This document shows positions 36,291 through 56,601 of a DNA stretch of 64,000 nt, in pieces (positions within the stretch are counted from its first letter, which is position 1; each line of letters opens with the position of its first letter). The position numbers and the translations under genes were made by a program. The DNA comes from Candidatus Enterousia intestinigallinarum (GTDB lineage Bacteria; Pseudomonadota; Alphaproteobacteria; Rs-D84): positions 806,001 to 870,000 of the forward strand of contig OX097180.1 in the NCBI GenBank assembly GCA_944407095.1. Reading direction: 5' to 3'. The notes below the pieces were generated by a model, which was not told where the DNA came from, did no database searches, and worked only from the letters and a program-made list of their open reading frames with translations.

Positions 36291-37471
36291 GCCACCGCCT
36301 GCAAGAACTTACAGAACAGTTCGTTGCATCCGGTGGCGAATTTACAGAACATAAAATTGATGATGTTTTTAATAAAATAGAAACGACAAAATTAAAATAT
36401 CCAGTAAGTCAACTTAGCAAAAAAAGAAACTCTATATTTAATTTGCCCGCAGTAACCGCAGGGATATTAAATCAGGGGCTGTCTTGTTATGTGCCAAGAG
36501 CCGAAGCAACAATACTAAAAAATGTAATAAGTGTTTCTGCAAATGGCGCAAATACTGGTGTTATGTTCTATCAACCATATGAATTTACAATTTTACAAGA
36601 TAGTTATGCCATAAAATGTAAAGTTCCTAATATTTCAGAAAGGCAATATTTGTACTTATTGTCTGCATTGCAAAAAACAATTTATGGTTATTTTGATTGG
36701 ACCGATAAAGCAGGTTGGACCAAAATCAAAAATTACAACATTATCCTTCCTACAAAAAATAATCAAATAGATTATACTTTTATGGAATCTTACATCCGCG
36801 AGCTGGAACAGGAGCGCATCAGCGAACTGGAACAATATCTGCGAGTGACGGGATTAGACACATATACACTGACCCCAAGGGAACAGGAGATATTAACATC
36901 GCATGCGGGAGGGGCAACACACCTATTTAGAATTGGCGATTTGTTTGAAAAACAACAGTTAAAATTTAAGAAAGCAAAATTTAATAAATCATCAGATGTT
37001 TCTAAAACGGCTTCAGATGAATTTGATTTGCCACTTGTAAATGCAAAAGATGGTGATAACGGTATTATGTATTATGGACGTTCTTGTGATTTTGAATATG
37101 CGGAAAACTCAATAGATATTGTTAATGATGGCGCTGTTTCTACTGGTAATGTTTATGCGCAACCGCAAAAAACAGGTGTGCTATATAATGCTTATCTAAT
37201 CAAATTAAAAAATTATACTCCGTCACCAGAAATTTTATTGTTTTTAGCTCAAACCATACAAAAAATAATTAAACCCGCATTTGGTTATGATAATAAGGCC
37301 GGCTGGGAAAAAGTAAAAAAGAAACTCATTTCGTTACCGATCAAAAATGGTGAAATCGATTTTGAATATATGGAAACATATATTCGTGCAATTGAAAAAG
37401 TTGTAATTCGTGGTGTCGTTGAATGGAAAAATAAAACCATTGAAGCAACAAAATCAGTTGTTAACGCATAG
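36239..37471 (+). CDS. Specificity subunit with two target-recognition domains
   Basis: About 410 residues contain two tandem HsdS-like target-recognition domains. Each ends with a similar block: KNYNIILPTKN then IDYTFMESYIRELE, and KKLISLPIKNGEIDFEYMETYIRAIE. These are the conserved helix spacers of type I/BcgI S subunits, which read the two halves of a split DNA site. The frame overlaps the upstream gene by 52 bp. No ATG exists near the beginning; TTG 36239 is the first possible start, and a downstream non-ATG start within the overlap is equally possible. Coupled translation is likely. Confidence 0.8.
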   Translation: MESINVNERRESCKFYLSHRLQELTEQFVASGGEFTEHKIDDVFNKIETTKLKYPVSQLSKKRNSIFNLPAVTAGILNQGLSCYVPRAEATILKNVISVSANGANTGVMFYQPYEFTILQDSYAIKCKVPNISERQYLYLLSALQKTIYGYFDWTDKAGWTKIKNYNIILPTKNNQIDYTFMESYIRELEQERISELEQYLRVTGLDTYTLTPREQEILTSHAGGATHLFRIGDLFEKQQLKFKKAKFNKSSDVSKTASDEFDLPLVNAKDGDNGIMYYGRSCDFEYAENSIDIVNDGAVSTGNVYAQPQKTGVLYNAYLIKLKNYTPSPEILLFLAQTIQKIIKPAFGYDNKAGWEKVKKKLISLPIKNGEIDFEYMETYIRAIEKVVIRGVVEWKNKTIEATKSVVNA

Positions 37472-37560: not shown

Positions 37561-37587
37561 AGAACGCGCGATTGCGCGTTCTTTTTA
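37561..37587. terminator. Bidirectional terminator
   Basis: AGAACGCGC/GCGCGTTCT stem with a 4-nt loop and T-rich tail between the restriction operon and the convergent ATPase gene. Confidence 0.8.
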
Positions 37588-38892
37588 TTCTTGAGGCAAT
37601 AGCCAGTCAAAGGCATTTATGATTTTTATACCTTTATATTCTTCTACAAATGGTCTATCCATTGTTATCAAGAATTTAGGGTTATGGTCATCAATGCTGT
37701 CCAGCGATCGTAGCTCGCGTTCGCGTGTTTCAGCGTTTTCTATCTGTTGCGACACCTGATAGTATTCTTTTGTGTCATTTTTTTTGGCAACAAAATCTAC
37801 CTCGTTTGCGCCAATCTTGCCAACATAGACTTGATAACCGCGTCTTATCAGTTCCAAATATACTATGTTTTCCAGTATGTGTCCTGCGTCGCCTTCGTGC
37901 CCTAGCAGCATATAACGCAACCCGATGTCGGCAACATAGTATTTAGAGTTTGTTTTTAATAACTGTTTGCCTTTGATATCATACCTATCGGCACGGTACA
38001 TAACAAATGTATCCAACAATGAATCTACATAACTATCGATTGTTACAGAATCTATTTTTATGCCATAATCTGATTCCAACGACTTCTTTATGCCCAACAA
38101 AGATGTTTCACGACCAATATTATCAAACATAAAACTGATAACTTTTTTCAGCCTGGATACGTCTTTTATGTTTTTTCTTTCCACTATATCCTTCAACACG
38201 ATGGTGTCCAATAAACTGGATAAAAACTGACGTACTTGTTCGCTAGCGATGGGGGCATCTGCCGGTGTGCCACTGGCGGCGAATTTAAGCAGTTGAACTG
38301 TGTACGGGAAGCCACTGTTGTGCAGATAGTCCTGGAACATTGATGCCAAGTTATATCTGCGTGGGTTCAGAAGTTCTTCACGAGTCCGTGCCGTCCACAT
38401 TCCAACCTGATGCACATTGTATGCGCTTACATATTCTTCAAAAGACAGTGGTTGCATATGTATCGTTATATATCGTCCGGAAAGCATGGTTGCCAATTCC
38501 CCGGATAACATCTTAGAGTTAGAACCCGTTATATAAATGTCTATGTTATCACGCAGACGCAGGCTGTTTATTGCTTTTTCAAAATGTTCTACATTTTGGA
38601 TTTCGTCCAAAAATATGTAGTTCATTTTTTCTGGTACAGCCTTTGCCAATATATGGTCGTGCAGTTTTTTCCAATCCAACAGGTCGCTAAAATTAGCGTC
38701 TTCAAAGTTTATTTGCTGTATTTGGTTGTCCTGCACACCATATTTCATCTGTAATTCCATTTGATACAGATAAAATATCGTGGATTTGCCACACCGGCGG
38801 ATGCCAGTTATAACCTTTATGACGTCAGATTTGTCGCGCCAAGCCATCAGTTGGCGCATATATGTGGGGCGTTCTATAAACGTTTGAGGCAT
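37585..38892 (-). CDS. AAA_14/DUF4143 ATPase, copy 1
   Basis: A 435-residue P-loop ATPase with Walker A GIRRCGKST near residues 30-38, Walker B YIFLDEIQNVEHF, sensor-like ITGSNSKML and a C-terminal DUF4143 domain (NEVDFVAKK region, nuclease-like fold). The family is common in gut bacteria and often varies in copy number; a cellular role is not established, though links to toxin-like or mobile functions are suspected. AAAGGA precedes the ATG. A close paralog lies at 55291-56601. Confidence 0.88.
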   Translation of the reverse strand: MPQTFIERPTYMRQLMAWRDKSDVIKVITGIRRCGKSTIFYLYQMELQMKYGVQDNQIQQINFEDANFSDLLDWKKLHDHILAKAVPEKMNYIFLDEIQNVEHFEKAINSLRLRDNIDIYITGSNSKMLSGELATMLSGRYITIHMQPLSFEEYVSAYNVHQVGMWTARTREELLNPRRYNLASMFQDYLHNSGFPYTVQLLKFAASGTPADAPIASEQVRQFLSSLLDTIVLKDIVERKNIKDVSRLKKVISFMFDNIGRETSLLGIKKSLESDYGIKIDSVTIDSYVDSLLDTFVMYRADRYDIKGKQLLKTNSKYYVADIGLRYMLLGHEGDAGHILENIVYLELIRRGYQVYVGKIGANEVDFVAKKNDTKEYYQVSQQIENAETRERELRSLDSIDDHNPKFLITMDRPFVEEYKGIKIINAFDWLLPQE

Positions 38893-39254: not shown

Positions 39255-40706
39255 TCAAAATACGTGGCATCTGATGGTGCCGTATTTTGCGCGTCCCCAT
39301 GCGTATTGGACGCCGTGTGCAAATGCGTCGCATTGGTCTTTGAACGTGACGCTTGGGAAATTTAGCAGTTCGTGTTTAAAATCTGGCCACCAAGGTCCAG
39401 CAACGGATGGGAATAAAACGGTTCCATTTTCAATATAAAGACTGGCGCCAGCAAATCTGGTGATTTTATCAGAGTCGGCCGCAACGGCTTTAACACGACC
39501 ACGATATTTTGATACTGTGCTTAGGTACTGAATTAACTGTGTTCCGGACGAGGCATCTTCTATCACGAAATATATGCCCGCGCCTTTGGGAAACTTGGCG
39601 TGATATTCATCATATAATTCATCCAATTTTTTGACAAGGTATGGAAATTCTAACCGCTCGCGATGTACGCTAAGCAGATATATCTTTCGGTTTGTCCTAT
39701 CAACCCCCAGAATTACAAATGCAGAATACGCATTGCTGCCACCTGTCTTGGCGGCGGTATCGCACGCAATATTGATTTCAGAAAAGGATGGCAGTTCACC
39801 ATTATAAAAATGCAGCCACTCTTCTTTTACCAGGTTGCCTTGGGCGGGCGCTGGCAGTTGCTGATATTGGCCTGCGAATACATATTCGCCCTGGGTGCGC
39901 CGAATGTCGCAAATTACATCCATGTTTTCGCGGGCTGGGTGCAACAGTTCGCCCGTCACGCGCTTCACGGTGTGTGTTCTATTATGAATGCGGTCTGTGT
40001 ATTGCCATGTCTCATCTGCATCGGCAATAACAGGCAAACGAATGTGTCTAAAATCAGAATTTGATTCCAACAGGAATCCTGTTAAATCGTGTTGATGCAG
40101 GCGCTGCATAATCAATATGATTTTACCACTTGGCTTATCGTTTAGGCGTGAACATAGGGTTGTGCCATACCATTCATTGACTTTTTCACGCTGAACATCA
40201 CTCATGGCATCAGATGGCTTTAACGGGTCATCAATAATAATCCAATCTGCGCCACGCCCGGTAAGTGTACCACCAATAGATGTTGATATTCGCCCACCGC
40301 CCCGCGTGGTTTCAAAATCAGAAATAGAGCGGCGTGAGGTGGCAATGCGCGTGTTTGGAAACATTTCTTGATACCATTGTTCAATCATAACGCGTCGGCA
40401 ATCACTGGCGAATTTTTCAGCCAGATTGTCATTATAGCTGACGCACATAACAGACGTTGCCGGATTATGACCCAACAAGAAGGCGGGCAGGGCGACCGAA
40501 CAAATGATAGATTTCATATTCCGTGGTGGAATATTGATAATCAGCCGCTTGTTCTTGCCCTCTATAATGTCCATGATTTCGCTACAAATCAGGTCTATGT
40601 GCCAGTTGTCAGAATATCCATCGCCTGACACGACATCAAAGACCTTGCGAACAAATGGCTTAAAATCTGTGCGCAAAATTGCATACAGTAATTCATTTTC
40701 AGACAT
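39255..40706 (-). CDS. Phage terminase large subunit
   Basis: TerL proteins are ATP-driven DNA-packaging motors with a nuclease domain. From ATG 40706 the protein has 483 residues. It carries a Walker A-like INIPPRNMKS, Walker B DWIIIDDPL with coupling residues after it, and a C-terminal RNase H-like nuclease domain beginning INIACDTAAKTGGSNAYS. AAGGG lies 6 nt before this ATG, and the start overlaps the upstream DUF5681 gene by 8 bp. The earlier in-frame start at 40805 is less likely. No portal or capsid genes accompany it. Confidence 0.9.
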   Translation of the reverse strand: MSENELLYAILRTDFKPFVRKVFDVVSGDGYSDNWHIDLICSEIMDIIEGKNKRLIINIPPRNMKSIICSVALPAFLLGHNPATSVMCVSYNDNLAEKFASDCRRVMIEQWYQEMFPNTRIATSRRSISDFETTRGGGRISTSIGGTLTGRGADWIIIDDPLKPSDAMSDVQREKVNEWYGTTLCSRLNDKPSGKIILIMQRLHQHDLTGFLLESNSDFRHIRLPVIADADETWQYTDRIHNRTHTVKRVTGELLHPARENMDVICDIRRTQGEYVFAGQYQQLPAPAQGNLVKEEWLHFYNGELPSFSEINIACDTAAKTGGSNAYSAFVILGVDRTNRKIYLLSVHRERLEFPYLVKKLDELYDEYHAKFPKGAGIYFVIEDASSGTQLIQYLSTVSKYRGRVKAVAADSDKITRFAGASLYIENGTVLFPSVAGPWWPDFKHELLNFPSVTFKDQCDAFAHGVQYAWGRAKYGTIRCHVF

Positions 40707-41082
40707 TGTCGCCCTTTTTGTGTAAATACTCGTCCAGTATCTCGCGATCTGTGCGGGATATAGTACCGGCTGCGGCGGCTGCATGGGCGGCTTTGCGTGC
40801 ATCAATTTGCATCAACAGCGGCAGTATTGTCTTAAACGTATTCAGATTACCTTGCGTCGCCTCGTTCGCCATACGTAACAGCATGGCTTGCCGTTTGGAT
40901 ATCTTTAATGGCCGGCCATCAATGGTTGCTGTGACCTTTTTACTTAAAATTTTATCAATCAGACGCAGTGTATCCATGCTGCCTTTTGGGCGACCTTTGG
41001 GATTCCCGGATTGTCCCGGCTTAAAGCGTGTGTGAACCGGCGGTTTGCAAAATCCAACTTTGTAATCAGTGTCATTATTCAT
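40699..41082 (-). CDS. DUF5681 family protein, possible small-terminase-like
   Basis: A 127-residue protein with the short signature TRFKPGQSGNPKGRPKG at about 18-34, the defining DUF5681 motif. A basic helical region follows. In phages and islands such proteins lie immediately before the terminase large subunit, where a small-terminase or DNA-recognition role is plausible. It overlaps the methyltransferase end by 8 bp and the terminase start by 8 bp, so all three are one operon. Confidence 0.8.
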   Translation of the reverse strand: MNNDTDYKVGFCKPPVHTRFKPGQSGNPKGRPKGSMDTLRLIDKILSKKVTATIDGRPLKISKRQAMLLRMANEATQGNLNTFKTILPLLMQIDARKAAHAAAAAGTISRTDREILDEYLHKKGDNV

Positions 41083-42379
41083 GTTCTTCCTTTTTCTTTG
41101 TTAATAATTCTGAATATGTTTGACCAGTTGCCAGATGCACGGCATCTGTGCCAAACAATTCATAAAAACGTCTGATGGTTGTGTCTATGTACATTGGCTC
41201 ATACTCTATGCCGCGGCATATACGATGGGCTTTATGGGCGGCAATAAGTGTACTGCCGGACCCCAGGAATGTATCCAACACAATGTCGCCGCGTTTTGAC
41301 ACGTCCAATATTGCGTCATACAGCATTTCAACTGGCTTTACCGTCGGGTGCAATTTTATATCGCCTTTGTGGCGACCGAATGCATTGACACCTGCATAGT
41401 TCCATACATTTGTCCGGTATCGGCCATGCCGCCCCAGTTCAACGTTATTTACATGGCTCTCTTTGCCGTTGCGAAATATCAAACATAGTTCATGTTGACT
41501 GCGATAAAGACTGCCCATACCACCAGATGTCTTTACCCAAACGCACAGGTTTATAAAATCACCAAATACGGAATCTAAAGCGGTTTTTATTTCTGTTATA
41601 TGACGCCAATCCATAAAGTTATATTGTATTGCGCCGTCATTAGAATACTTTTTGCACAGGGTAAAGTTATCTGTTAAAAACTTGGTAAATTCTTCGGACG
41701 ACATTTCTCCAGACGCCATGGGAAATTCATCGTGGCGTATATTTCCACATCCGCAAACGTGTCCCGAAATCTTAACGTTGTAAGGCGGGTCTTGGATGAC
41801 CATATCGGCGCGTTTGTCGGACAGTAGACGGGCGAAACTCTCTTCGTCCAGACTGTTGGCGCATATGATTTTATGACGCCCCAGCTGCCATATGTCGCCA
41901 GGTTGCGTTACGATTTCGTCTTCGGGAACAAATTCTATTTTATTCAGTTTTTTGTCTGGTGCAGGGGCTGTGTCTGTTATCAGGTTGTTGATTTCAACTT
42001 GCTCAAACCCTGTGATTGTTATGTCGTCCACATAAATCTGTTCCAGATCCGATATTTCCAACGCTAACAGTTCTTTGTTCCAGCCACCGTTTTCTGAAAT
42101 TTTATTGTCGGCCAGGCGATAAACACGCTTTTGCGTTTCGTCCAGGTGTGTTAAACGAATAACTGGCACGGTCTCCATTTGCAATTGTTGTGCTGCCATA
42201 TATCTGCCGTGGCCAGCAATTATTTCATCGTTTTCATCTATCAGAATAGGGTTGTTAAAACCGAATTTTTTAATAGAATCTGCAATTTGATGCACCTGCT
42301 TTTGCGGGTGGTCTTTTGGGTTGTTTTGATATGCTTTTAGTGAATTTAACTCAACATATGTAATTTTAATGTCCGCCAT
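41075..42379 (-). CDS. ParB-like nuclease domain fused to DNA methyltransferase
   Basis: This 434-residue phage-type fusion starts with a ParB/Srx-fold domain (VELNSLKAYQNNPKDHP, then GHGRYMAAQQL). A beta-class amino-methyltransferase follows, with catalytic DPPYN (near residue 200) and SAM-binding VLDTFLGSGSTLIAA towards the C-terminus. It would methylate adenine or cytosine amino groups in DNA, protecting the element or altering host marks. GGAGG lies 6 nt before the ATG. It leads the operon to DUF5681 and terminase. Confidence 0.9.
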   Translation of the reverse strand: MADIKITYVELNSLKAYQNNPKDHPQKQVHQIADSIKKFGFNNPILIDENDEIIAGHGRYMAAQQLQMETVPVIRLTHLDETQKRVYRLADNKISENGGWNKELLALEISDLEQIYVDDITITGFEQVEINNLITDTAPAPDKKLNKIEFVPEDEIVTQPGDIWQLGRHKIICANSLDEESFARLLSDKRADMVIQDPPYNVKISGHVCGCGNIRHDEFPMASGEMSSEEFTKFLTDNFTLCKKYSNDGAIQYNFMDWRHITEIKTALDSVFGDFINLCVWVKTSGGMGSLYRSQHELCLIFRNGKESHVNNVELGRHGRYRTNVWNYAGVNAFGRHKGDIKLHPTVKPVEMLYDAILDVSKRGDIVLDTFLGSGSTLIAAHKAHRICRGIEYEPMYIDTTIRRFYELFGTDAVHLATGQTYSELLTKKKEEHE

Positions 42380-42439
42380 TTGAACCTCCGTTTTTCGGAC
42401 AATATGGCAGACAATATAAAAAAGCGATTTTTTAATTTT

Positions 42440-43222
42440 TTAGCTAGCTATTTTCGGAAATTTCGCACTTTGAATCCAACGTTCCAAGGTTGAATCTGTT
42501 GGTGTTAGATGCCCCTTTGATGTCAGAGTTTGCAAGTCTTTGCCGTATTCTGATTTATATAAAGTTTTCAGATTTCTGATAAATTCAGGGGTTTGTTTAT
42601 TGGTTGGACGGCGCAGGTTGGCTTTTAGTATCAATTTTTGCACATTATGCTTTTTGTTCCCGCCCTTGTTTTTACCCCCAATGCCACCTTTGATTTTGTT
42701 ATTTAACTTAAATTCCAATCGGCTTTGTGCGTCGGCCATGATAGCACTGCGGTTAGATAGTTCGGCAATTTGTTCGCGTGTTAAAGTGTTTCTGTCCAGT
42801 ATTTCGTACAGGTTTTGCATTTTGCTGACGTTTAGCAAAATTTGCGCGACAAGGAACAGATTTTCAGTCAGGTTTAAATCTGATAAAAATTTAGTAAAGC
42901 TGTAATCTGGGCTTGCGTTGCGCACATCGGTTTTTTCATAACGTGTAAATGGTGTGTCGTGCTTTTGAATCAAAAGATTAACACCAGGCATAACCATATT
43001 TAATCCACGTGGGGCAAAAGTTTTTTCATAATCTGCAATTGGTGCAATTAGGCTAGATATGGCGCTGTTCAGGTGGGCAAAATCGTTGTTTTGCAGAGCT
43101 TTTTTAATGTCTGGGTCTTCGTATTCCCACGCCAAAAAAGCAATCATTAGCGCCTGGTTAAAGCGCTGTCTGAATTTTGTGTTTTTCCAAGTAAAATCAA
43201 AAAACTTATCAAGGTTATTCAT
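42440..43222 (-). CDS. Hypothetical protein, divergent from Zorya-like operon
   Basis: A 260-residue cytoplasmic, mostly helical protein that I do not recognise. The C-terminal third is basic, with KIKGGIGGKNKGGNKKHN and a helical end (LTPTDSTLERWIQSAKF) that could bind DNA. AAAGGA precedes the ATG. It reads leftward from the same 119-bp gap that serves the rightward defence operon, so it might be its regulator or belong to the phage-type operon ahead of the methyltransferase. Both ideas are inference. Confidence 0.55.
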   Translation of the reverse strand: MNNLDKFFDFTWKNTKFRQRFNQALMIAFLAWEYEDPDIKKALQNNDFAHLNSAISSLIAPIADYEKTFAPRGLNMVMPGVNLLIQKHDTPFTRYEKTDVRNASPDYSFTKFLSDLNLTENLFLVAQILLNVSKMQNLYEILDRNTLTREQIAELSNRSAIMADAQSRLEFKLNNKIKGGIGGKNKGGNKKHNVQKLILKANLRRPTNKQTPEFIRNLKTLYKSEYGKDLQTLTSKGHLTPTDSTLERWIQSAKFPKIAS

Positions 43223-43341
43223 GGTAAAAATCCTTTTGCCTCAGCATAGCAAAATAATGATCAAAATCCAAAAAAATATTGTTTTTTGTGCGATTTTAAG
43301 TCAAACTTTGCTAAAAGTGGTAAGTTAATAGGAAAACAAAG
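43223..43341. promoter_or_regulatory. A+T-rich divergent promoter region
   Basis: This gap must hold start signals for both the leftward hypothetical gene and the rightward Zorya-like operon. On the minus strand a possible pair is TTGGAT, 17 nt, TATGCT, ending shortly before the ribosome binding site at about 43232. A second TTGACT box on the minus strand lies further out. No rightward consensus stands out. Confidence 0.4.
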
Positions 43342-46095
43342 ATGATTTCAAAACAACAGGCTAAGTACTTTGCATATGAATTAACAAAATTGAATAGAGA
43401 TGATTTTACAAGAGTTTTGATGGATGCAACAGTTGATTTACAACCGCATCAGATAGATGCTGCTGCATTTGCTTTGCGTTCTCCGCTGTCTTCAGGGGTT
43501 TTGCTGGCTGACGAAGTTGGACTTGGAAAAACAATAGAGGCTGGAATAGTACTTGCACAATTATGGGCAGAAAACAAAAGGCACATATTGATTATTTGTC
43601 CTGCTTCTTTGAGAGAGCAATGGCATAATGAATTGAAAGATAAATTTGATATACCAAGTATAATTATTGATAGAAAAAATTATAAAAAACGTATTTTAGA
43701 TTTAACAGACAAGATTATTATCATGTCATATAATTTTGCTGCTAAAATAGAAAGAGATTTACAGCCCATTCCATGGAATTTAGTGGTTATGGATGAAGCC
43801 CATAAATTAAGAAATTCTTATAAAGAAAGCAATAAAATGGGGAATGCTTTGAAGGCGGCTTTGTCAGGAAGAAAAAAACTGTTATTAACAGCAACCCCAT
43901 TGCAAAATTCTTTGGCGGAGTTATTCGGTTTATCTCAGTTGATAGATGAGTATATATTTGGAAGTTATAAATCTTTTAAAAATCAATATACATCTGGTGT
44001 AAAGGGAGCTGAAGAAGAATTAAAAGAGCGTTTAAAAGTATTCTGTAAGCGCACATTAAGGAAACAGGTTTTGGAATATATAAAATATACAGAAAGAAAA
44101 GCGGCTACATTTTTATTTACACCATCGAATGCAGAAATATGTTTGGAAGAAAAGGTAAAAGCTTTTTTATTGGAGGATAGCAAGTATGCTTTGCCGATAA
44201 GACAGAGGCAGTTAATAGAGATGATACTTTTCAAGCTGTCTGCTTCGTCTACTGCTGCAATTAGGGGGACTTTTGAGACAATTTTAGCGCGTTTGGAAAA
44301 GATAAAAAGTGGTGTGGATACATCTGGTGAAGATTCAGAGCTAATAAATGTCATTGAAGATGAGTATGAAGATTTAGAAAATGAAGATGCTGAAGGAGTA
44401 GAGGAAAAAGTAGATGAAGTAGAACTTGAAAAGGAAATACAACAAGTAAAGGATATAATCACTTTATGTGCGGCTGTTAAAGAAGATGAAAAAGCAAAAA
44501 CTTTGGTAAATGCTTTATCTACTACTTTCGATAAAATTATGCACTCTGACGTGGATAATCCACCATTGAAAAAAGCTTTAATATTTACAGAAAGCAGAAG
44601 AACCCAGGATTTTTTGTTTGATTATTTAAGTGCTCATGGATATAAAGACAAAATAGTTTTATTTAATGGATCAAATAAAGAAAATAGAGAGGTTTTGTTA
44701 GATAAATTTAAAAACGATGCGGAAATAATGATTGCTACAGAGGCTGGGGCCGAGGGGTTAAATATGCAATTTTGTTCTATTGTGGTAAATTATGATTTGC
44801 CATGGAATCCGCAAAGAGTCGAGCAAAGAATAGGGCGTTGCCATAGATACGGTCAACAACATGATGTTGTTGTTATCAATTTTGTCAATAAAAGTAATAA
44901 AGCAGATCAAAGAATTTTTTCTTTGTTAAATGAAAAGTTTCACTTGTTTGAAGGAGTTTTTGGTGCTTCTGATCAGGTGCTGGGAGCAATAGAAGATGGG
45001 CTTGATATAGAAAAGAAAATATTAAAGATTTGTAAAACTTGTCGTACTACTGAAGAGATAGACGCTGCCTTTAATGATTTGCAGAAACAAATGGAAGACT
45101 CTATAAATCAAAAATTAGCAGAAACAAAGGCTAAAATATTGGATTTATTGGATACTGATGTTATTAGACGAATGAAAGGAAATTTGGCTCAGACGGAACA
45201 AAAACTTACAGAGTATGAGCAAATGTTTTGGGAGATTTGTCAATTTATTTTAAAATATGATGGGTATTTTGATAATACCGATTACTCTTTTACTTTGACT
45301 AACCCTCAATTAGGAATTCCACAAAAATATTATTTTATAGTTAGTGGTAACAAGCAGTCAGATAAAGATTCTGCCTTGTTATTGCGTTCTACTCATCCTA
45401 TTGCACAATACGTTTTAAACAAAGCTAAGCAATTGAAAATACCAACTGAAGAATTGTGTTTTGATGTTACTAATAATGTTACAAAAGAATTTCTGCTAAC
45501 AGATATGTGTAAAAAGGGGATTAGTGGTTTTTGTAATTGCCAGTTGCTTTCATTAGATTCTTTGGACAAAGAAGAATATCTAGTTTTGTCCGGAATAGAT
45601 AACGATTTTAATGAGGTTCCTTCGGAAATTTTGGAAAAGTTATTTAGATTGAAAGTTATTTCTGATGTTGCTTGTCCTGATATAGAAGGACGTGCAAAAG
45701 ATTGTTTGAATGCAATCAAGGGCAATAATATAGAAGTAAAGCGAGTAGAATCAAATCGAAAGAACGCAGAGTTTGTAAAAGAAGAGGTAGATAAAATAGA
45801 TCGGTATATAAAAGATAAAGTATTCCCATTAGAGAAAGAAATTAAAGATATAGAAGCACAAATTAAAGTATATACCAAGGATTCTTTGCTAGAACCGGAT
45901 CCTGCAAGAATTTTATTTTTGCAAGAAGAAACACAAAAGCTTGAAAGACAAAAAAAGACAAAAAGTAGAGAACTTTATGATCTTCAAGACGAATTAGACG
46001 AACAGCGTAGCAAGTTGATTAATGATTTAAGAAAAAAATTATCAATGGTTGTTGGAGTGCAGGATCTTTTTGAATTTAAATGGAGACTGGTATGA
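43342..46095 (+). CDS. SNF2/RapA-type helicase-translocase (ZorD-like role)
   Basis: This 917-residue superfamily 2 ATPase has motif I DEVGLGKT at 57-64, DEAH at 151-154, LTATPLQN, and motif VI QRIGRCHRYGQ at 495-505. An acidic insert follows residue 330. The C-terminal 400 residues are rich in coiled coil and end with KLERQKKTKSREL-type heptads. SNF2 enzymes translocate on double-stranded DNA. In Zorya type I an SNF2 helicase, ZorD, works with the ZorA/B channel, but it has a different domain order. Its stop overlaps the next start (ATGA). A+T-rich, AGA-rich codon use marks the whole operon as foreign. Confidence 0.88.
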   Translation: MISKQQAKYFAYELTKLNRDDFTRVLMDATVDLQPHQIDAAAFALRSPLSSGVLLADEVGLGKTIEAGIVLAQLWAENKRHILIICPASLREQWHNELKDKFDIPSIIIDRKNYKKRILDLTDKIIIMSYNFAAKIERDLQPIPWNLVVMDEAHKLRNSYKESNKMGNALKAALSGRKKLLLTATPLQNSLAELFGLSQLIDEYIFGSYKSFKNQYTSGVKGAEEELKERLKVFCKRTLRKQVLEYIKYTERKAATFLFTPSNAEICLEEKVKAFLLEDSKYALPIRQRQLIEMILFKLSASSTAAIRGTFETILARLEKIKSGVDTSGEDSELINVIEDEYEDLENEDAEGVEEKVDEVELEKEIQQVKDIITLCAAVKEDEKAKTLVNALSTTFDKIMHSDVDNPPLKKALIFTESRRTQDFLFDYLSAHGYKDKIVLFNGSNKENREVLLDKFKNDAEIMIATEAGAEGLNMQFCSIVVNYDLPWNPQRVEQRIGRCHRYGQQHDVVVINFVNKSNKADQRIFSLLNEKFHLFEGVFGASDQVLGAIEDGLDIEKKILKICKTCRTTEEIDAAFNDLQKQMEDSINQKLAETKAKILDLLDTDVIRRMKGNLAQTEQKLTEYEQMFWEICQFILKYDGYFDNTDYSFTLTNPQLGIPQKYYFIVSGNKQSDKDSALLLRSTHPIAQYVLNKAKQLKIPTEELCFDVTNNVTKEFLLTDMCKKGISGFCNCQLLSLDSLDKEEYLVLSGIDNDFNEVPSEILEKLFRLKVISDVACPDIEGRAKDCLNAIKGNNIEVKRVESNRKNAEFVKEEVDKIDRYIKDKVFPLEKEIKDIEAQIKVYTKDSLLEPDPARILFLQEETQKLERQKKTKSRELYDLQDELDEQRSKLINDLRKKLSMVVGVQDLFEFKWRLV

Positions 46096-46664
46096 TAGAG
46101 AAAAGTTTTGTATCGATGTTCTCTAAAGATGCGATGCCTTCTTATTCTATTGTAGAGAATATGTTAAAAAGCGGAGTGAACGTTGACGAAGAAACTCAGA
46201 ATGGACAAACTCCGCTTTTACGGGCAGCAGTGTATTCAGATGATAGTAAAATATTGAAGCTTTTGCTTGAATATGGCGCAAATGTTAATGTTCGTGATAA
46301 TATTGGGCGTACCCCATTGATGGCGGCTGTAATCGGAAACAAAATAGATAATGTTAGACTTTTGTTAGAGTACGGTGCAAAAGTCAATAGTTTTATTCTT
46401 GAAACTAAAGAGACTCCGATAATATTGGGGTGTATGTGGGCTGATAAAAAGGTTATTGAGTTACTTGTAGCACATAATGCAAATATTAATGCACAAAATA
46501 AGAATGGTTATAATGCGTTAATGGTAGCTATAGAATGCGGTAAGTATGATATTGTTGAATTTTTAGTGGAACATGGTGCTGTTTTAACAAAAGAAATAAA
46601 ACAGTTCGCTAAAACTTTTCCAAAATTTGTATCAAGTGACATAGGGAAAAAAATATTGTCTTGA
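46092..46664 (+). CDS. Ankyrin-repeat protein
   Basis: From ATG 46092 (GGAG 7 nt upstream) the protein has 190 residues with about four ankyrin repeats: GQTPLLRAAVYSDD, GRTPLMAAVIGNKID, TPIILGCMWADKK and GYNALMVAIECGKYD. Ankyrin stacks bind partner proteins. It begins inside the helicase stop (ATGA overlap), so translation is coupled. An ankyrin adaptor is not part of the classical Zorya types I-III. A sensor, inhibitor or assembly role is possible but unproven. Confidence 0.85.
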   Translation: MIEKSFVSMFSKDAMPSYSIVENMLKSGVNVDEETQNGQTPLLRAAVYSDDSKILKLLLEYGANVNVRDNIGRTPLMAAVIGNKIDNVRLLLEYGAKVNSFILETKETPIILGCMWADKKVIELLVAHNANINAQNKNGYNALMVAIECGKYDIVEFLVEHGAVLTKEIKQFAKTFPKFVSSDIGKKILS

Positions 46665-46709
46665 AATCAAACCATTTTTTCTGTACTTTTTTGGCAAAAA
46701 GGATTGTGA

Positions 46710-47780
46710 ATGCTTACATTTTTTACTAAACTTGAAGAAGAAATAAATAAGAAACCAAAAACTGTGTTCTTTTTCATTACGTTTATGGTTTTGTCCTTCT
46801 TAGGTACATTTTTTTGGACAGGTAGTTTTGTAAATGCGATTTTTGTTCTGGTCCTATTTATATTGCTTGCATATGATTTACTGCTCCATACATACAGTAA
46901 AGCGTGGTATCCGACTATAGGTATGTTTGGTACATTCTTAGGCATATTTTTAGGGCTTATGGATTTCGACACTGTAAACATAGAAAATAGTTTACCTGTA
47001 TTGTTGGATGGTTTAAAAATAGCTTTTCTTACAAGTATTGCAGGATTAGTGTTCTCAATTATTAGAATATTATTGGCTAAATTTGGTTTGTGCCCTATTG
47101 ATGAAAAGACGGAATTAGCTGAATTAGAAAATATGAATAGTAATTTCGATAAATTTATAAAAAAAATAGGCAAAAATTTTGGGGAGCAAATTCAAGAAGG
47201 TTTATCAGATGCTTTAAATAATTTAACAGAAAATATTTCTAATAGTTTTACGAAAAGTATAGACAATTTTACAGAATCTGTAAATGTGTTATCTGAAAGT
47301 GTAGATCAATTGCAAGAGTTGCATGAAAAGTATGATAACAGGTTGGAATCATTGAATGAAACAGCCAAAAATTTATCGTCTTTGTTAGATAAAAGCGCAA
47401 TTTCTGTTTCTGAAATGGGAAAGTCTATGGACGATTTAATTGCATTTTCTCACGAAACACAGAAAATTTTGAAACCTATGGATGAATTACCAGTGACACT
47501 TCAAAAAACGCAAGATTTAACTGTGGCTACACTTCAAAACATTAACTTAATGAAAGAAGAATATGCAACCGCAACACAAGAATTTTTTAATAAGTTAAAC
47601 ACTCAATATGAGAATGAATTGACACAAGCGGGCGGTTGGATTGCAGGAATAGTTGAAAAGTTGGCTGATGACTTTGAGAAAGTTAATAAGGAATTGGAAA
47701 GTGTGGCCAAAGAATTGCCGAATTCTATGGAAGAATTAAAAAAGTATGTGGATAAATCTATCGCTAAAAACAATAAATAG
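46710..47780 (+). CDS. ZorA-like MotA/ExbB-family proton channel with long coiled-coil tail
   Basis: This 356-residue protein has four membrane segments (about 18-36, 39-60, 68-84 and 98-124). The conserved channel core is GTFLGIFLGL followed by GLKIAFLTSIAGL, the MotA/TolQ/ExbB signature. Residues 130-356 are a cytoplasmic coiled-coil tail without MotA's torque-generating loop. ZorA of the Zorya anti-phage systems has exactly this plan: an ion-driven rotary stator with an intracellular tail. AAAAGGA precedes the ATG. The ZorB-like partner follows after 12 bp. Confidence 0.85.
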   Translation: MLTFFTKLEEEINKKPKTVFFFITFMVLSFLGTFFWTGSFVNAIFVLVLFILLAYDLLLHTYSKAWYPTIGMFGTFLGIFLGLMDFDTVNIENSLPVLLDGLKIAFLTSIAGLVFSIIRILLAKFGLCPIDEKTELAELENMNSNFDKFIKKIGKNFGEQIQEGLSDALNNLTENISNSFTKSIDNFTESVNVLSESVDQLQELHEKYDNRLESLNETAKNLSSLLDKSAISVSEMGKSMDDLIAFSHETQKILKPMDELPVTLQKTQDLTVATLQNINLMKEEYATATQEFFNKLNTQYENELTQAGGWIAGIVEKLADDFEKVNKELESVAKELPNSMEELKKYVDKSIAKNNK

Positions 47781-47792
47781 GGTTATTAAAAT

Positions 47793-48533
47793 ATGTCTAG
47801 AAGAGAAGATAATTCACATTATGTATCACTGGCAGACATTATGACTGCCCTGATGCTTATATTTTTATTTGTTTCTGTATCTGTGATTAGGTATGCGCAA
47901 AAAAAGTACGAAAATTATAGTAGATGTGAACAGATTACAGAAACATATTTTGATAAAAAAGAAAGTTTATACGAAGATTTGAAAGAAGAGTTTAAAAGGA
48001 ATTTGTCTTCATGGAATGCAGAGATAACTCCAGATTTATCATTTAAATTTACAGAGAAATCTGCACAGTTTAATAGGAATGAAGCTGTTTTAAGACCAGA
48101 ATTTCAAGAAAAATTAAAAGAGTTTTTCCCGCGCTATATAAAGACATTGGCCCCATACAGAGATCAGATACAAGAAATTCGTATAGAGGGACATACGGAT
48201 ACCACAGGCCCTTGTGATGTTTCTTCTTCAGAAATTTGTGTTATGAAAGATGGACCATATAGCGTTGCTGGCGATTATACTAATGAACAAAAAAACTATT
48301 TGTATAATATGGGTTTGTCGCAAGCACGTGCAAAGAATGTTTTGGCGTATTGTTTAAGTTTGACGCCTGATTTAGATTATGTTAAGCAATATATAACGGC
48401 AAATGGTTTAAGCTATTCAAAACTTATAAAAGATTCAAAAGGTCTAGAAGATCCAGATGCTTCTCGTCGTGTAGAGTTTAAGGTTTTATTAAAGGCAGAA
48501 GATAATATGAAAAATATAAAAGGCGGTTTTTGA
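47793..48533 (+). CDS. ZorB-like MotB/OmpA-domain stator protein
   Basis: A 246-residue protein with a single N-terminal membrane segment (about 13-32) carrying the proton-binding Asp15 in SLADIMTALMLIFLF. A periplasmic OmpA/MotB peptidoglycan-binding domain follows: GHTDT at 133-137, LSQARA near 165-170 and DASRRVEF at 222-229. This is the standard ZorB layout, partner of the preceding ZorA-like channel. Absence of other flagellar genes argues against a motility stator. Its stop overlaps the next start (TGATG). Confidence 0.87.
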   Translation: MSRREDNSHYVSLADIMTALMLIFLFVSVSVIRYAQKKYENYSRCEQITETYFDKKESLYEDLKEEFKRNLSSWNAEITPDLSFKFTEKSAQFNRNEAVLRPEFQEKLKEFFPRYIKTLAPYRDQIQEIRIEGHTDTTGPCDVSSSEICVMKDGPYSVAGDYTNEQKNYLYNMGLSQARAKNVLAYCLSLTPDLDYVKQYITANGLSYSKLIKDSKGLEDPDASRRVEFKVLLKAEDNMKNIKGGF

Positions 48534-49051
48534 TGGGGGGATTGGCAGGTGCTATTGTTGAATTAGAGAAAATTGCTCAAAAAATAGGTGCAAATAGGTT
48601 AGGTAGCTTTTCTGGTACCATCGAGCAGATGGTAAAACGTGGCTTCATTGAAAAGCCTAAGCCCGGCAATGTTATTAGAACAACTGATGGAAAAGTTGTT
48701 TTTATGTATATTGATGATAATGCAAATTTTGATAGGGATTTACTTAGCAGAAATAAAGTTCATGTTTTCTACTGCTCTGCTATAAGTAGAATGGATAACA
48801 AAGGAATCGCTAATCAGCGATATAAGGCAGAAACGGTGGTTTCAAATGATGGCATGTTTCGCATGGCAAATGGTCGGATGTTAAAATTAAATTTATGTGA
48901 ACATTGCTTCAGAAAAGTAAAAAGTAGAAAGTATGGGAATCCGACAAACTTTGCTTTTGCTGATTTTGCCAAGGAGAGATATGTTGCGCCAAAGAATAAG
49001 CTAAAACCGCGTAGCGGTCCAATAAATAATAATATTGGAATATTTGATTAA
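48533..49051 (+). CDS. Unknown protein of the Zorya-like operon
   Basis: From ATG 48533 the protein has 172 residues. It begins with a Gly-rich helix (MGGLAGAIVELEKIAQKIG), continues with a beta-rich middle, and has one paired-cysteine motif, NLCEHCFRKV near residue 125. The end is basic and Pro/Lys/Asn-rich. No known family is recognised. Start and ZorB-like stop overlap (TGATG), showing tight coupling to the channel genes. It takes the position where ZorC, ZorE or ZorF/G would be in described systems, but resembles none of them by eye. Confidence 0.6.
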   Translation: MGGLAGAIVELEKIAQKIGANRLGSFSGTIEQMVKRGFIEKPKPGNVIRTTDGKVVFMYIDDNANFDRDLLSRNKVHVFYCSAISRMDNKGIANQRYKAETVVSNDGMFRMANGRMLKLNLCEHCFRKVKSRKYGNPTNFAFADFAKERYVAPKNKLKPRSGPINNNIGIFD

Positions 49052-49101
49052 TAAATTAGCTTTTTAGTTTGTATATTTATCAAGTTTTATAAGAGAAAGT
49101 G

Positions 49102-49686
49102 ATGAAACAGATCAAAGAAAAGTGGGGCTTTTTGCGTGAAACAACAGAAGCGGCTATAAAAGCAGGGATAGATCGTGGAACTGGCTTACATAGAACAGGG
49201 TTAAATGAGTATTTAAAAGTAATTTTCCCCAATGTAGATGATTGGGTGCATGATAAGGTATTGGGCCTTACTGTGAATAATAAAGTCTGCAGGAAACGAC
49301 CAGATTATCGAAGTGAAAAATTAAAAATGATAGTTGAATTTGACGGCATACAACATTACACAATGCCGGACAGAATAAAAAACGATGTTTTAAGCACGAA
49401 GTTTTATGAAAGTTTGGGCTATAAAGTGGTTCGTATTCCGTATTTTATTCAATTGACTAATAAAGCAGTTAAATATTTTTTTAATGTCGATGTAAAAGAA
49501 CCTTTATTTAACGAAAATATCCATTCTATGGATAAGAATGACAGAAATACGCCGGCTTTTTTGTGCGGGGCAGGTGTTCTTAGAATGATAGAAGAATTTA
49601 AACATCATCCAGAACAATATAGGGTAAACAAAGAATTCTTAATAAGTCAGAACGATCAGTTCTTAACTGGAGTAGATTTGATCTGA
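49102..49686 (+). CDS. PD-(D/E)xK-like endonuclease, DUF559/Vsr type
   Basis: ATG 49102, preceded by AAGAGA, encodes 194 residues. The centre reads RKRPDYRSEKLKMIVEFDGIQHY, an active-site pattern (Asp, then Glu-x-Asp-Gly with Gln-His) of the Vsr/DUF559 endonuclease-like superfamily. YKVVRIPYFI follows as the next strand. It is the last gene of the Zorya-like operon, 50 bp after the unknown gene, and is the likely DNA-cutting effector. The N-terminal 60 residues may form a partner-binding region. Activity is inferred. Confidence 0.75.
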   Translation: MKQIKEKWGFLRETTEAAIKAGIDRGTGLHRTGLNEYLKVIFPNVDDWVHDKVLGLTVNNKVCRKRPDYRSEKLKMIVEFDGIQHYTMPDRIKNDVLSTKFYESLGYKVVRIPYFIQLTNKAVKYFFNVDVKEPLFNENIHSMDKNDRNTPAFLCGAGVLRMIEEFKHHPEQYRVNKEFLISQNDQFLTGVDLI

Positions 49687-52501: not shown

Positions 52502-54910
52502 GTGCAGATTCTAAAAATTGAAAAAATAAAAAATGTCGGGCAAATCAAGGAATATACAGCTCGTGGCGATGTCGCTTTTAAGAAGTTTAATGCTATTTAT
52601 GGTGAAAATGCCGTTGGTAAGAGCACCTTAGCAATGATTTTTCGAGCATTAAAAACGGGAGATGCGACAGCAGTTGGTTTGAAAAAGACTTTAGGCGTTG
52701 CGGAATCTGCAGAACAAGAGGTGCAAGTTAAGGTAAAGGATGGTGAACAAGAACGTGTTTTCCTATACAAAAAGCCCAATACTTGGCAAACGCATAAAAT
52801 TCCAGAGATAGAAATATTTGATGCCTACTTTGTGGAGAAGAATATTCTTTCAGGATGGCAATGCAGTACAGAACACCAAAAAAATTTGCCAACTCTCATT
52901 CTCGGAGAAGAGGGAATAAAACAGGCAATTGAACTAGAAAAATATAAAAAAGAATTGAACGAAACGATACCTGTTGAGGAAAATCGTATAAAAGGCGAGA
53001 TTATTAGGAAAAATTCAGATTTTTTAAAAGTGCCTTTTAGCGGAGCTAGAGCAGATGAATTTTTAAAGAAATTTTATAATATGCCGAAACCAGTCGATGG
53101 ATATGATTATGATAAGCACATTGAAGAAACAACAAGTCGTATAAAAATATTAGAGGCATTAGTAAATAATCCTGAACGTCAGCCTTTTAAGAAACTTGCT
53201 ATTCCGGAGTTTGATAAAGACTACTTTGTAAATAAAATTCTGCATAAGACCTTGGAAGCTTTATCAAAAGACGCAGAAACAAAAGTTAAAGAACATGCAC
53301 GTGCTTTTGGAATGCCAAATGCTTTGTGGTTAGTGCAGGGGCACCAATTTTTAGGAGAAAAAGATAAATGCCCCTTTTGTGGTCAATCAATATTAAATAT
53401 AGATTTAGTTAGCTGTTATAAATCTTATTTTTCTGAGGAATATAGAAATTTTGCTAATTCGTTGAGAAGTTATAATGGTCTTGATGTTTTTGAAGAAAAT
53501 AGGGTTACTGAATTAGTAAATAGCATTTTAATGAATGCAGAAATACGTCGCGCGTTTAATGGGGGAATAACAGATAAGTGGCCAGAGATAAGTATTGATG
53601 AGTTGAAGGTAGTATATGCAGATCTTAATAGAATCTTAAAAAACGCGTATGATAAGAAAAAAACAGCTGTTTTAGATTTGGTGGATTTACCTGATGATTT
53701 TGATGCGGTTTTTTCAAGATTTACTGCGTTTGTGAATCAATTTAATGTTTATAATAAAGCAATAGACGATACAAATGCTAAATTGTCGGGATTAAATCCA
53801 GATGATTTGGAGTCTGAACGTAAAAGACTTTTGGTACTTAATTTACAAAAAACACGTCATTGCATTCTAAATGAATTGGCAGAAACAGAGGTTAAAACAT
53901 TAATAGATAGGCGTCACTCAACTGATATGAATTATAGAACGTTGCAGGAAAGTTTTCGGACGAATGCTATTAAATTTAAGGATGATTATGAGTTTTTAAT
54001 CAATGGGTTCCTTGAAAAGTTTGGTGTAAATTTTAGAATTCATATTACACCGCCTAATTTACGTACATCGAAGCCGAGCTACGATTTCGGAATAATTATT
54101 GATAACTGTAATGAACATATCGTTGCAGCTAGACCGAAAACTTCTATTGATGAGGAACTATGTATTGGTAATGCATTAAGTGAAGGTGATAAATCCACAT
54201 TGGTATTAGCTTTCTTTTTGGCTAAACTAAAAAGGGCTGATAGTTTATCAAATAAAATTGTGGTTGTGGATGACCCTATCTCTTCTTTGGGTATCTCTAG
54301 AAAGAGAAGAACGATTGTTGAAATTCAAGATTTGTCAAAACAAGTATCGCAACTGTTTGTCTTATCTCATGATGCCCTATTTTTGGATACGCTATTTCGA
54401 AAAATACCTAATGCAGAGAAAAAAAGCCTAAAGTTAGCAAAAATTGAAGGTGTGAGTAGCGTAATTGAAGAATGTAATTTAAGTGAGATTGTTAAAGACA
54501 GGCATCTAAAAGCATATGATTCAATAAAACAGTATTCTCAAAAGGCTAGTCATACAGATGCTGATAAACGCCAAGTTGTGGCAGATATTAGAATATACTT
54601 AGAAGGTTTGTTGCAAAGTTTGTATCCAGCAGAGTTTAAGCATGAAAAATATTTAGGTGACTATTGCTCAATTATAAATAGTAATCCAAACCATAAATTG
54701 AGAGATATAAAGGATAAATTGGAATATTTAAAGGACTTATCTTCGCCAGAACACCACAGCAGTTCAGAAGGAGCTCCAACTGATGCAGAAACGGCACACG
54801 CCGTTAGCGAAACGCTAGGTTTAGTTGACTTTTTATTGGAGCCACCTAAGGTGAATAATTCTGATCCAATTACAGCAAAAACAGTGTTGGATACACCTTT
54901 GAAAATGTAA
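52502..54910 (+). CDS. AAA_13 ATPase, RloC/PrrC-like
   Basis: This 802-residue SMC-like ATPase has Walker A GENAVGKST at 34-42, coiled coils, and a zinc-hook-like CPFC at 290-293. An ABC-type LSEGDKSTLVLAFFLAKL signature, Walker B VVVDDPISSL and H-loop LSHD follow. This is the RloC/PrrC architecture; RloC is a DNA-damage-responsive tRNA anticodon nuclease that aborts phage infection. In the C-terminal region an RxxxE (IRIYLE) followed about 30 residues later by His resembles the nuclease residues, but the match is not decisive. The start is GTG with AAGGA 7 nt upstream. Confidence 0.75.
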   Translation: MQILKIEKIKNVGQIKEYTARGDVAFKKFNAIYGENAVGKSTLAMIFRALKTGDATAVGLKKTLGVAESAEQEVQVKVKDGEQERVFLYKKPNTWQTHKIPEIEIFDAYFVEKNILSGWQCSTEHQKNLPTLILGEEGIKQAIELEKYKKELNETIPVEENRIKGEIIRKNSDFLKVPFSGARADEFLKKFYNMPKPVDGYDYDKHIEETTSRIKILEALVNNPERQPFKKLAIPEFDKDYFVNKILHKTLEALSKDAETKVKEHARAFGMPNALWLVQGHQFLGEKDKCPFCGQSILNIDLVSCYKSYFSEEYRNFANSLRSYNGLDVFEENRVTELVNSILMNAEIRRAFNGGITDKWPEISIDELKVVYADLNRILKNAYDKKKTAVLDLVDLPDDFDAVFSRFTAFVNQFNVYNKAIDDTNAKLSGLNPDDLESERKRLLVLNLQKTRHCILNELAETEVKTLIDRRHSTDMNYRTLQESFRTNAIKFKDDYEFLINGFLEKFGVNFRIHITPPNLRTSKPSYDFGIIIDNCNEHIVAARPKTSIDEELCIGNALSEGDKSTLVLAFFLAKLKRADSLSNKIVVVDDPISSLGISRKRRTIVEIQDLSKQVSQLFVLSHDALFLDTLFRKIPNAEKKSLKLAKIEGVSSVIEECNLSEIVKDRHLKAYDSIKQYSQKASHTDADKRQVVADIRIYLEGLLQSLYPAEFKHEKYLGDYCSIINSNPNHKLRDIKDKLEYLKDLSSPEHHSSSEGAPTDAETAHAVSETLGLVDFLLEPPKVNNSDPITAKTVLDTPLKM

Positions 54911-55290: not shown

Positions 55291-56601
55291 TTATGAATTC
55301 AATAGCCAATCAAACGCATTCACGACTTTTATGCCATTATACTCATTTCTGAAAGGTGTATCCATTGTTATCAAGAATTTTGGATTATGGTCGTCTATTT
55401 TATCCAAAGAACGCAATTCTCGTTCAAATGTATCAGAATTCAAAACTGTTTGTGATACTTGATAATATTCTGTTGTTCCATTTTTTATTGCAACAAAGTC
55501 TATTTCATAAGAATCCAGTTTGCCAACATATACCTGATAACCGCGGCGCACTAATTCCAAATAAACTATATTTTCTAATATATGACCAGCATCACCTTCG
55601 CGACCTAATAACATATATCGCAAGCCCATATCTGCAACATAGTATTTAGAGTTTGTTTTTAACAGTTGTTTGCCTTTTATATCGTATCTGTCCGCTTTAT
55701 ACATGACAAAAGTATCCAGCAAAGATTCTACATAGCTATCTATTGTTGCAGAATCTATTTTTATTCCAGCATCAGTTTCCAAAGACGTTTTTATTTTAAG
55801 TAAAGACGTTTCGCGTCCTATATTGTCAAACATAAACTTTATTACTCTTTTTAGTCTGGCTACATCTTTGATCTTTTTGCGTTCAACTATGTCTTTCAAC
55901 ACGATTGTATCTAATATTCCAGATAGAAACTGACGTATTTGTTCGCTTGCTATCGGTTCGTTATATGGTATGTTTGTGCGTGCAAACTTTAATAATTGTA
56001 CCGTGTACGGAAAACTGCTGTTGTGCAAGTAATCTTGAAACATAGAATTTATATTATGACGTCTTGGGTTTAAAAATTCTTCACGTGTTCTGGCTGTCCA
56101 CATCCCGACTTGGTGTACGTTATATGCCATTACATATTCAGAAAAAGATAAAGGTTGCATATGTATGGTGATATAACGTCCAGAAAGAAGCGTTGCCAGT
56201 TCGCCAGAAAGCATTTTTGAATTAGATCCTGTTATATATATGTCTATGTTTTCGCGTAATCTAAGACTGTTTATGGCCTTTTCAAAATGTTCAACATTTT
56301 GTATTTCGTCCAGGAACACATAATTCATCTTACCAGGAACAACATTCTTCAATATGTGATCATGCAGTTTTTTCCAATCTAATAAGTCTGAAAAATTTGC
56401 GTCTTCAAAATTTATCTGTTGTACCTGAGCGTCAGATACCCCATGATTCAAGAATAAGTCTGTTTGAAAAAGTTGAAACAGCGTGGATTTACCACAGCGC
56501 CTTATTCCAGTTATTACTTTTATAACATCTGACTTATCGCGCCAAGCTTCAAGTTGTTTGATATATTGTGGGCGCGGTATCAATGTTTGTATAGCAGACA
56601 T
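55291..56601 (-). CDS. AAA_14/DUF4143 ATPase, copy 2
   Basis: A 436-residue paralog of the protein at 37585-38892. Most residues are identical, including Walker A GIRRCGKST, Walker B YVFLDEIQNVEHF, ITGSNSKML and the whole middle region with MQPLSF. Differences cluster near the N- and C-termini and around residues 205-215. The two genes lie in the same orientation about 17.7 kb apart and bracket the phage and defence cargo, so homologous recombination between them could delete it. AGGATT upstream of the ATG serves as a weak ribosome binding site. Confidence 0.88.
   Translation of the reverse strand: MSAIQTLIPRPQYIKQLEAWRDKSDVIKVITGIRRCGKSTLFQLFQTDLFLNHGVSDAQVQQINFEDANFSDLLDWKKLHDHILKNVVPGKMNYVFLDEIQNVEHFEKAINSLRLRENIDIYITGSNSKMLSGELATLLSGRYITIHMQPLSFSEYVMAYNVHQVGMWTARTREEFLNPRRHNINSMFQDYLHNSSFPYTVQLLKFARTNIPYNEPIASEQIRQFLSGILDTIVLKDIVERKKIKDVARLKRVIKFMFDNIGRETSLLKIKTSLETDAGIKIDSATIDSYVESLLDTFVMYKADRYDIKGKQLLKTNSKYYVADMGLRYMLLGREGDAGHILENIVYLELVRRGYQVYVGKLDSYEIDFVAIKNGTTEYYQVSQTVLNSDTFERELRSLDKIDDHNPKFLITMDTPFRNEYNGIKVVNAFDWLLNS

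What the first reader, a model, noticed from the sequence alone, without database searches (positions are those of the whole stretch)
48533..49051. Unknown protein fixed between ZorB-like and nuclease genes
The 172-residue protein starts inside the ZorB-like stop codon, so its translation is coupled. It has a single CxxC motif (NLCEHC) and a basic disordered tail, and it matches no family I know. Its position suggests an adaptor linking the membrane channel to the nuclease.
Basis: inference. Interest (0 to 1): 0.6.

Follow-up and report, generated by a model that had tools for sequence, protein, structure and literature searches.

The report
Nuclease-less ZorE in a hybrid Zorya
The "unknown" protein is the zinc-binding front half of ZorE, the DNA-nicking enzyme of the Zorya II anti-phage system, without its nuclease half; in this gut-bacterial lineage it sits in a conserved cassette with a helicase and an ankyrin protein, which suggests that the system swapped its cutting enzyme for a helicase.

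Summary
The gene is real: 172 aa, its ATG overlapping the zorB stop (TGATG). It is not an orphan. It is a distant relative of the N-terminal domain (DUF8245) of ZorE, the type II Zorya nickase: PADLOC ZorE E=1.7e-10; hhalign of short versus canonical ZorE 97.6%, E=4e-12. The HNH nuclease is absent. H77 aligns with E. coli ZorE H90, which a 2026 preprint found essential for defence.

Across all 201 genomes held for the order, this domain occurs in exactly the six that carry a type II ZorB, always directly after zorB. Four share a five-gene cassette: DrmD-like SNF2 helicase, ankyrin, ZorA, ZorB, short ZorE. One encodes a full HNH-ZorE as well; another fuses ZorE-N, a decayed HNH ribbon and ankyrin repeats next to a GajB-like helicase.

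The "fixed" link to the DUF559 nuclease is wrong: four relatives carry that gene without ZorAB, the other cassettes lack it, and the G164 comparison puts it outside the cassette.

Best reading: a Zorya II variant in which an HNH-less ZorE couples the ZorAB motor to a borrowed helicase. Identity about 0.95; mechanism about 0.5.

The parts
48533..49051 (+). Short ZorE (ZorE-N): DUF8245-type domain, 172 aa, no HNH nuclease
   Evidence: PADLOC ZorE E=1.7e-10; NCBIfam NF041791 E=9.7e-6, below cut-off; hhalign 97.6%, E=4.4e-12; model pLDDT 84, pTM 0.75
48761..48775 (+). First half of the predicted Zn site, H77-x3-C81 (HVFYC); H77 aligns with E. coli ZorE H90
   Evidence: invariant in 29 of 29 aligned relatives; PMC13192584 (H90A abolishes defence)
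48896..48907 (+).
   Evidence: invariant in 29 of 29 aligned relatives
47793..48533 (+). ZorB (MotB/OmpA-like, type II), 246 aa; conserved channel Asp15 and peptidoglycan-binding motifs
   Evidence: PADLOC ZorB2 E=3e-69; alignment A11
46710..47780 (+). ZorA (MotA-like, type II), 356 aa, with coiled-coil-like cytoplasmic tail
   Evidence: PADLOC ZorA2 E=1.4e-26; alignment A10
46080..46664 (+). Ankyrin-repeat protein, 194 aa
   Evidence: Pfam Ank E=9e-31; conserved position in four cassettes, ankyrin repeats fused to ZorE-N in G120
43342..46095 (+). SNF2 helicase, DrmD-like, 917 aa; no nuclease domain detected; first gene of the cassette
   Evidence: Pfam SNF2; PADLOC DrmD E=2e-177; in exactly four of 201 order genomes, all with ZorAB/ZorE-N
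49102..49686 (+). DUF559 (PD-(D/E)xK-like) nuclease: neighbour in the conserved flank, not a cassette member
   Evidence: Pfam DUF559 E=2.3e-6; relatives without ZorAB; G164 comparison
42400..49089 (.). Variable slot: the cassette plus the 42440-43222 gene are replaced by about 900 bp in G164 while both flanks stay over 90% identical

Best explanation
SHOWN (about 0.95): the protein is a stand-alone ZorE N-terminal (DUF8245) domain whose HNH nuclease has been lost, encoded directly after ZorA and ZorB as ZorE is in type II Zorya. In this lineage it belongs to a five-gene cassette: SNF2 (DrmD-like) helicase, ankyrin protein, ZorA, ZorB, short ZorE. INFERRED (about 0.5): ZorAB senses phage-induced envelope damage and signals through the ZorA tail, as in characterised Zorya systems. 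Short ZorE, held together by a zinc site, is the soluble component recruited to activated ZorAB and to the incoming DNA. Instead of nicking the DNA itself, it brings in or licenses the SNF2 helicase, with the ankyrin protein as a bridge, and the translocating helicase blocks or disrupts the phage genome. Any cutting would have to come from another enzyme.
For: Homology to ZorE. Zn-site residues invariant, and the E. coli equivalent H90 is required for defence (PMC13192584). ZorAB recruits ZorE to the membrane on infection (PMC11890865). Gene order ZorA-ZorB-ZorE with gaps of -4 to +29 nt in the HNH-less loci. In all 201 order genomes the domain occurs in exactly the six with type II ZorB, and the helicase in exactly four, all with the cassette. 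G120: ZorE-N fused to a decayed HNH ribbon and ankyrin repeats, followed 3 nt later by a GajB-like UvrD helicase. G119: an HNH-ZorE and a short ZorE in one gene array, so the short form is not simply a decayed copy left alone. No HNH-ZorE elsewhere in the window's genome. The short forms of the genus plus the G120 fusion form one clade, UFBoot 99.
Against: No interaction or activity was tested. The step 'ZorE-N contacts helicase or ankyrin' rests on gene neighbourhood and one gene fusion. G071 and G231 have short ZorE after ZorB with no helicase or ankyrin, so short ZorE can exist without them. A cell-wide nuclease, or the adjacent DUF559 enzyme, could still be used. No solved structure resembles the model, so DNA binding by the domain is not supported by fold.
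Confidence: 0.6

Rival explanations
1. One reading: the protein is an adaptor that couples ZorAB to the DUF559 nuclease next door, a split ZorE with its HNH replaced by a PD-(D/E)xK enzyme.
For: The nuclease gene starts 51 bp after the stop on the same strand. The conserved upstream sequence that precedes it in G164 and G172 is missing here, so it may now depend on the Zorya operon.
Against: Nuclease relatives at 60-96% identity in four genomes without ZorAB; absent beside the other HNH-less loci; co-occurrence within chance, P=0.14; lies in the conserved flank of the variable slot.
Confidence: 0.12
2. The short ZorE is a decaying remnant of a ZorE nuclease with no remaining function.
For: The HNH has been lost, and G120 shows a half-decayed HNH ribbon.
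Against: Intact ORF with the zinc residues invariant in species sharing only 29-52% identity; tight coupling to zorB kept in all; retained beside a full HNH-ZorE in G119.
Confidence: 0.1
3. The short ZorE acts alone as the ZorAB effector or regulator: a DNA-binding or inhibitory zinc domain. The helicase and ankyrin are a separate passenger module.
For: G071 and G231 have only a short ZorA-like gene, ZorB and short ZorE, with no helicase or ankyrin. Plasmid relatives of the helicase (about 43% identity) sit with type III restriction-modification genes in the three loci inspected.
Against: Within the order the helicase never occurs outside the cassette, and an ankyrin-ZorE fusion exists.
Confidence: 0.18

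Closest known systems
ZorE of type II Zorya (HNH nickase; DUF8245 + HNH)
   Same: N-terminal DUF8245-type domain with the same four putative zinc residues; gene directly after zorB; type II ZorA and ZorB
   Different: No HNH domain: 172 aa against 264-382 aa in the canonical ZorE proteins collected here; accompanied by ankyrin and an SNF2 helicase
Type I Zorya (ZorABCD)
   Same: ZorAB motor plus an SNF2-family helicase
   Different: Helicase is closer to DrmD than to ZorD and shows no Mrr nuclease match; no ZorC was noticed; ZorA and ZorB match type II models best
DISARM DrmD helicase
   Same: SNF2 helicase scores 590 bits to PADLOC DrmD and 587 to NF038318
   Different: Below the NF038318 equivalog cut-off of 950 bits; no DrmA, B or C was noticed beside it
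Zorya type III (ZorF/ZorG)
   Same: ZorAB with alternative soluble partners (PMC8565338)
   Different: No DUF3348 or DUF2894 match among the cassette proteins

Membership tests
ZorE (type II Zorya) | N-terminal DUF8245-type domain | tested here: met
   PADLOC ZorE E=1.7e-10; hhalign 97.6%, E=4.4e-12 over 123 columns; residues 77/81/97/122/125 invariant
ZorE (type II Zorya) | HNH nuclease domain (H, HH, N and CxxC motifs) | tested here: not met
   Protein ends at residue 172 before any HNH; no Pfam HNH match; no HNH-ZorE elsewhere in the genome
ZorE (type II Zorya) | NCBIfam equivalog score | tested here: not met
   NF041791 24.7 bits against cut-off 600
Type II Zorya (system) | ZorA2 and ZorB2 directly upstream of ZorE | tested here: met
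   cassette order
Type II Zorya (system) | DNA-nicking effector | tested here: not met
   No nuclease shared by the cassettes; helicase shows no nuclease domain
Type I Zorya | ZorC and ZorD (SNF2 + Mrr) | tested here: not met
   Helicase matches DrmD far better than ZorD and shows no Mrr; no ZorC match among the proteins scanned
DISARM | DrmA, DrmB, DrmC with DrmD | tested here: inconclusive
   DrmD-like helicase only; no DrmA/B/C among the neighbouring proteins scanned, but the whole genome was not searched for them
Zorya (anti-phage function) | Protects against phage | not testable with these tools
   needs plaque assays

The most novel reading that the evidence does not exclude
A Zorya type not found in the papers searched, in which ZorE has been stripped to its zinc-binding targeting domain and the motor's output is a helicase taken from another defence system (SNF2/DrmD-like in four genomes, GajB-like UvrD in a fifth) with an ankyrin bridge. 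This would make DUF8245 the general ZorAB-coupling adaptor onto which different effectors are plugged.
Probability: 0.45. Interest if true: 0.7.

Novelty: new variant of a known kind. Interest (0 to 1): 0.55.

Why it matters
How ZorAB passes its signal to the soluble effector is a central open point in Zorya. A natural system in which the ZorE N-terminal domain is kept and the nuclease discarded separates coupling from cutting. It offers a minimal adaptor to test against the ZorA tail and a predicted site (H77/C81/C122/C125) for point mutants. If the helicase is the output, it shows effector swapping on one motor. Caution on priority: the 2026 preprint kept only ZorE variants with a recognisable endonuclease, which implies that others were seen (PMC13192584), and PADLOC already holds a 162-position ZorE model that this protein matches along its domain (PDLC00646).

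Tried and rejected
Orphan or unknown family: rejected. Fixed nuclease partner: rejected as a cassette member. Close relatives of the domain on plasmids, phages or viral contigs: P0001 or short-ZorE queries found none; a profile with HNH pulled out 40 viral stretches matching the HNH part only; a ZorB search of viral contigs gave 15 loci, 12 with full-length ZorE after ZorB, 11 of them HNH by motif and one (L157) with a degenerate HNH. Solved structures: none by sequence for P0001, E. coli ZorE or a ZorE profile; Foldseek and VIA gave only weak ATP-grasp-like hits (best E 0.71; Z 2.6), which I do not interpret. Nature 2025 Zorya paper not held. A search of the order of G231 held one genome only. 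The held Pfam copy gives no DUF8245 match for E. coli ZorE either.

Full report
Observation. The ORF exists as described: ATG at 48533, stop ending at 49051, 172 aa, the A of the ATG being the last base of the zorB TGA. It codes: this frame scores +32 bits by codon use against 8 for the next best. The CxxC and the disordered tail are there. Two parts of the description fail: the protein has recognisable relatives, and the nuclease neighbour is not fixed.

What it is. Pfam gives nothing, but PADLOC's ZorE models hit residues 40-147 (best E=1.7e-10) and NCBIfam's ZorE model hits residues 42-137 (E=9.7e-6, far below its equivalog cut-off). BLASTP against E. coli ZorE gives E=2e-7 for this single comparison. 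A profile of four short forms against a profile of eight canonical ZorE proteins gives 97.6% probability, E=4.4e-12 over 123 columns. The part matched is the N-terminal region that PMC13192584 names DUF8245; the HNH domain that follows in ZorE is missing.

The motif. H77, C81, C122 and C125, plus Y97, are invariant in 29 of 29 aligned relatives. H77 aligns with H90 and Y97 with Y109 of E. coli ZorE. In PMC13192584 an AlphaFold3 model puts H90 in an N-terminal zinc site, and H90A abolished both Zorya defence and synergy. That these four residues bind zinc in this protein is inference. A model built on 15 sequences is confident for residues 25-150 (pLDDT 90-96 in most blocks, pTM 0.75) with a disordered tail; no solved fold resembles it.

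Distribution. In the 201 genomes held for the order, ZorE-N-containing proteins occur in six genomes and type II ZorB, by strong match, in the same six (chance of that overlap about 1e-11 if genomes were independent; shared ancestry makes the real figure less extreme). Two further genomes (G016, G025) hit only over the HNH part of the profile. The canonical ZorE loci checked for gene order (E. coli and Psychrobacter plasmids, other Alphaproteobacteria, other genomes of the phylum) and 12 viral contigs also have ZorE directly after ZorB. The HNH motif was found by pattern in most; L055 and L157 carry variants that the pattern missed. HNH-less forms were seen only in this order and in G231.

The cassette. 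The SNF2 helicase occurs in exactly four of the 201 genomes, always as helicase-ankyrin-ZorA-ZorB-short ZorE (window; G001; G048; G119; counts). Identity between copies is 57-62% for the helicase, 58-72% for ZorB and 29-52% for short ZorE. Two variants are informative. In G119 an additional HNH-bearing ZorE precedes the helicase in the same gene array, so the short form is kept alongside a complete one. In G120 the ZorE N-domain is fused to a zinc ribbon that looks like an HNH without its HHxNG and N residues, and then to ankyrin repeats, followed 3 nt later by a GajB-like UvrD helicase. The combination ZorAB + DUF8245 + ankyrin + helicase therefore recurs with two kinds of helicase. In a tree of the domain, the short forms of the genus and the G120 fusion form a clade with 99% bootstrap; G071 and G231 lie outside it.

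The nuclease. Full-length DUF559 relatives occur in G164 (96%), G172 (92%), G003 (67%) and G188 (60%), none with ZorAB. Window and G164 match at 91% up to 42399 and again at 94.6% from 49090, about ten bases before the nuclease start; between these points the window holds 6.7 kb and G164 about 0.9 kb with an unrelated ORF. The right-hand junction thus falls between the short ZorE stop and the nuclease gene.

Mechanism. Established for Zorya II: ZorAB is an ion-driven motor with a peptidoglycan-binding ZorB and a long ZorA tail, and it draws ZorE to the membrane on infection, where ZorE nicks DNA (PMC11890865). Here ZorB keeps the channel Asp and peptidoglycan-binding motifs and ZorA keeps its core and tail, but the nickase domain is gone and no nuclease is common to the cassettes. 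The simplest inference is that the retained domain does the coupling and that the helicase, perhaps through ankyrin, provides the output. This is inference from gene content, one fusion, and published mutants of E. coli ZorE.

Setting. The cassette lies in a low-GC stretch (36.7% against 46.3% for the left flank of the window) that begins at a tRNA-Ser and carries a serine recombinase, type I restriction genes, a terminase-like gene and a ParB-methylase (names from sequence and established families, not all searched). Plasmid relatives of the helicase (about 43%) sit beside type III restriction-modification genes in the three loci inspected, which points to recruitment of the helicase from a restriction setting.

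Verdict. New variant of a known kind. Identity about 0.95; helicase-adaptor mechanism about 0.5.

Noticed in passing
30768-57400: Low-GC mobile-element-like defence island starting at a tRNA-Ser, with serine recombinase (31833-33473), HsdM/HsdS-like genes (34260-37471), terminase-like gene (39255-40805) and ParB-methylase (41075-42379). Sequences just after the tRNA recur in relatives.
   Followed up: partly
49102-49686: DUF559 nuclease is a roaming gene: 92-96% identical copies in two relatives without Zorya; in G003 it follows an AAA/KAP-like NTPase gene (L094:7272-9209).
   Followed up: partly
L007:8063-9714; L053:5645-7541: Minimal loci: a 148-159 aa ZorA-like protein without the long tail (hhalign 62%, E=8e-5), ZorB, and a short ZorE, with no helicase or ankyrin.
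   Followed up: partly
L038:9727-12969: ZorE-N fused to a decayed HNH zinc ribbon and ankyrin repeats, followed by a GajB-like UvrD helicase, with no GajA looked for or noticed.
   Followed up: partly
L144, L145, L146: Relatives (about 43%) of the window helicase on enterobacterial and Blastomonas plasmids next to type III methylase and restriction genes, often with a small HTH gene before the helicase.
   Followed up: partly
37585-38892 and 55291-56601: Two closely similar AAA ATPases (both contain AWRDKSDVIKVITGIRRCGKST near the start) on either side of the defence cluster.
   Followed up: no
52502-54910: AAA_13 ATPase matching the PADLOC candidate system PDC-S06 (E=3e-57), downstream of a DUF2130 gene.
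   Followed up: no
L148 and L150: Viral contigs where ZorB is followed by a ZorA-like gene (reversed order) and no ZorE was detected.
   Followed up: no
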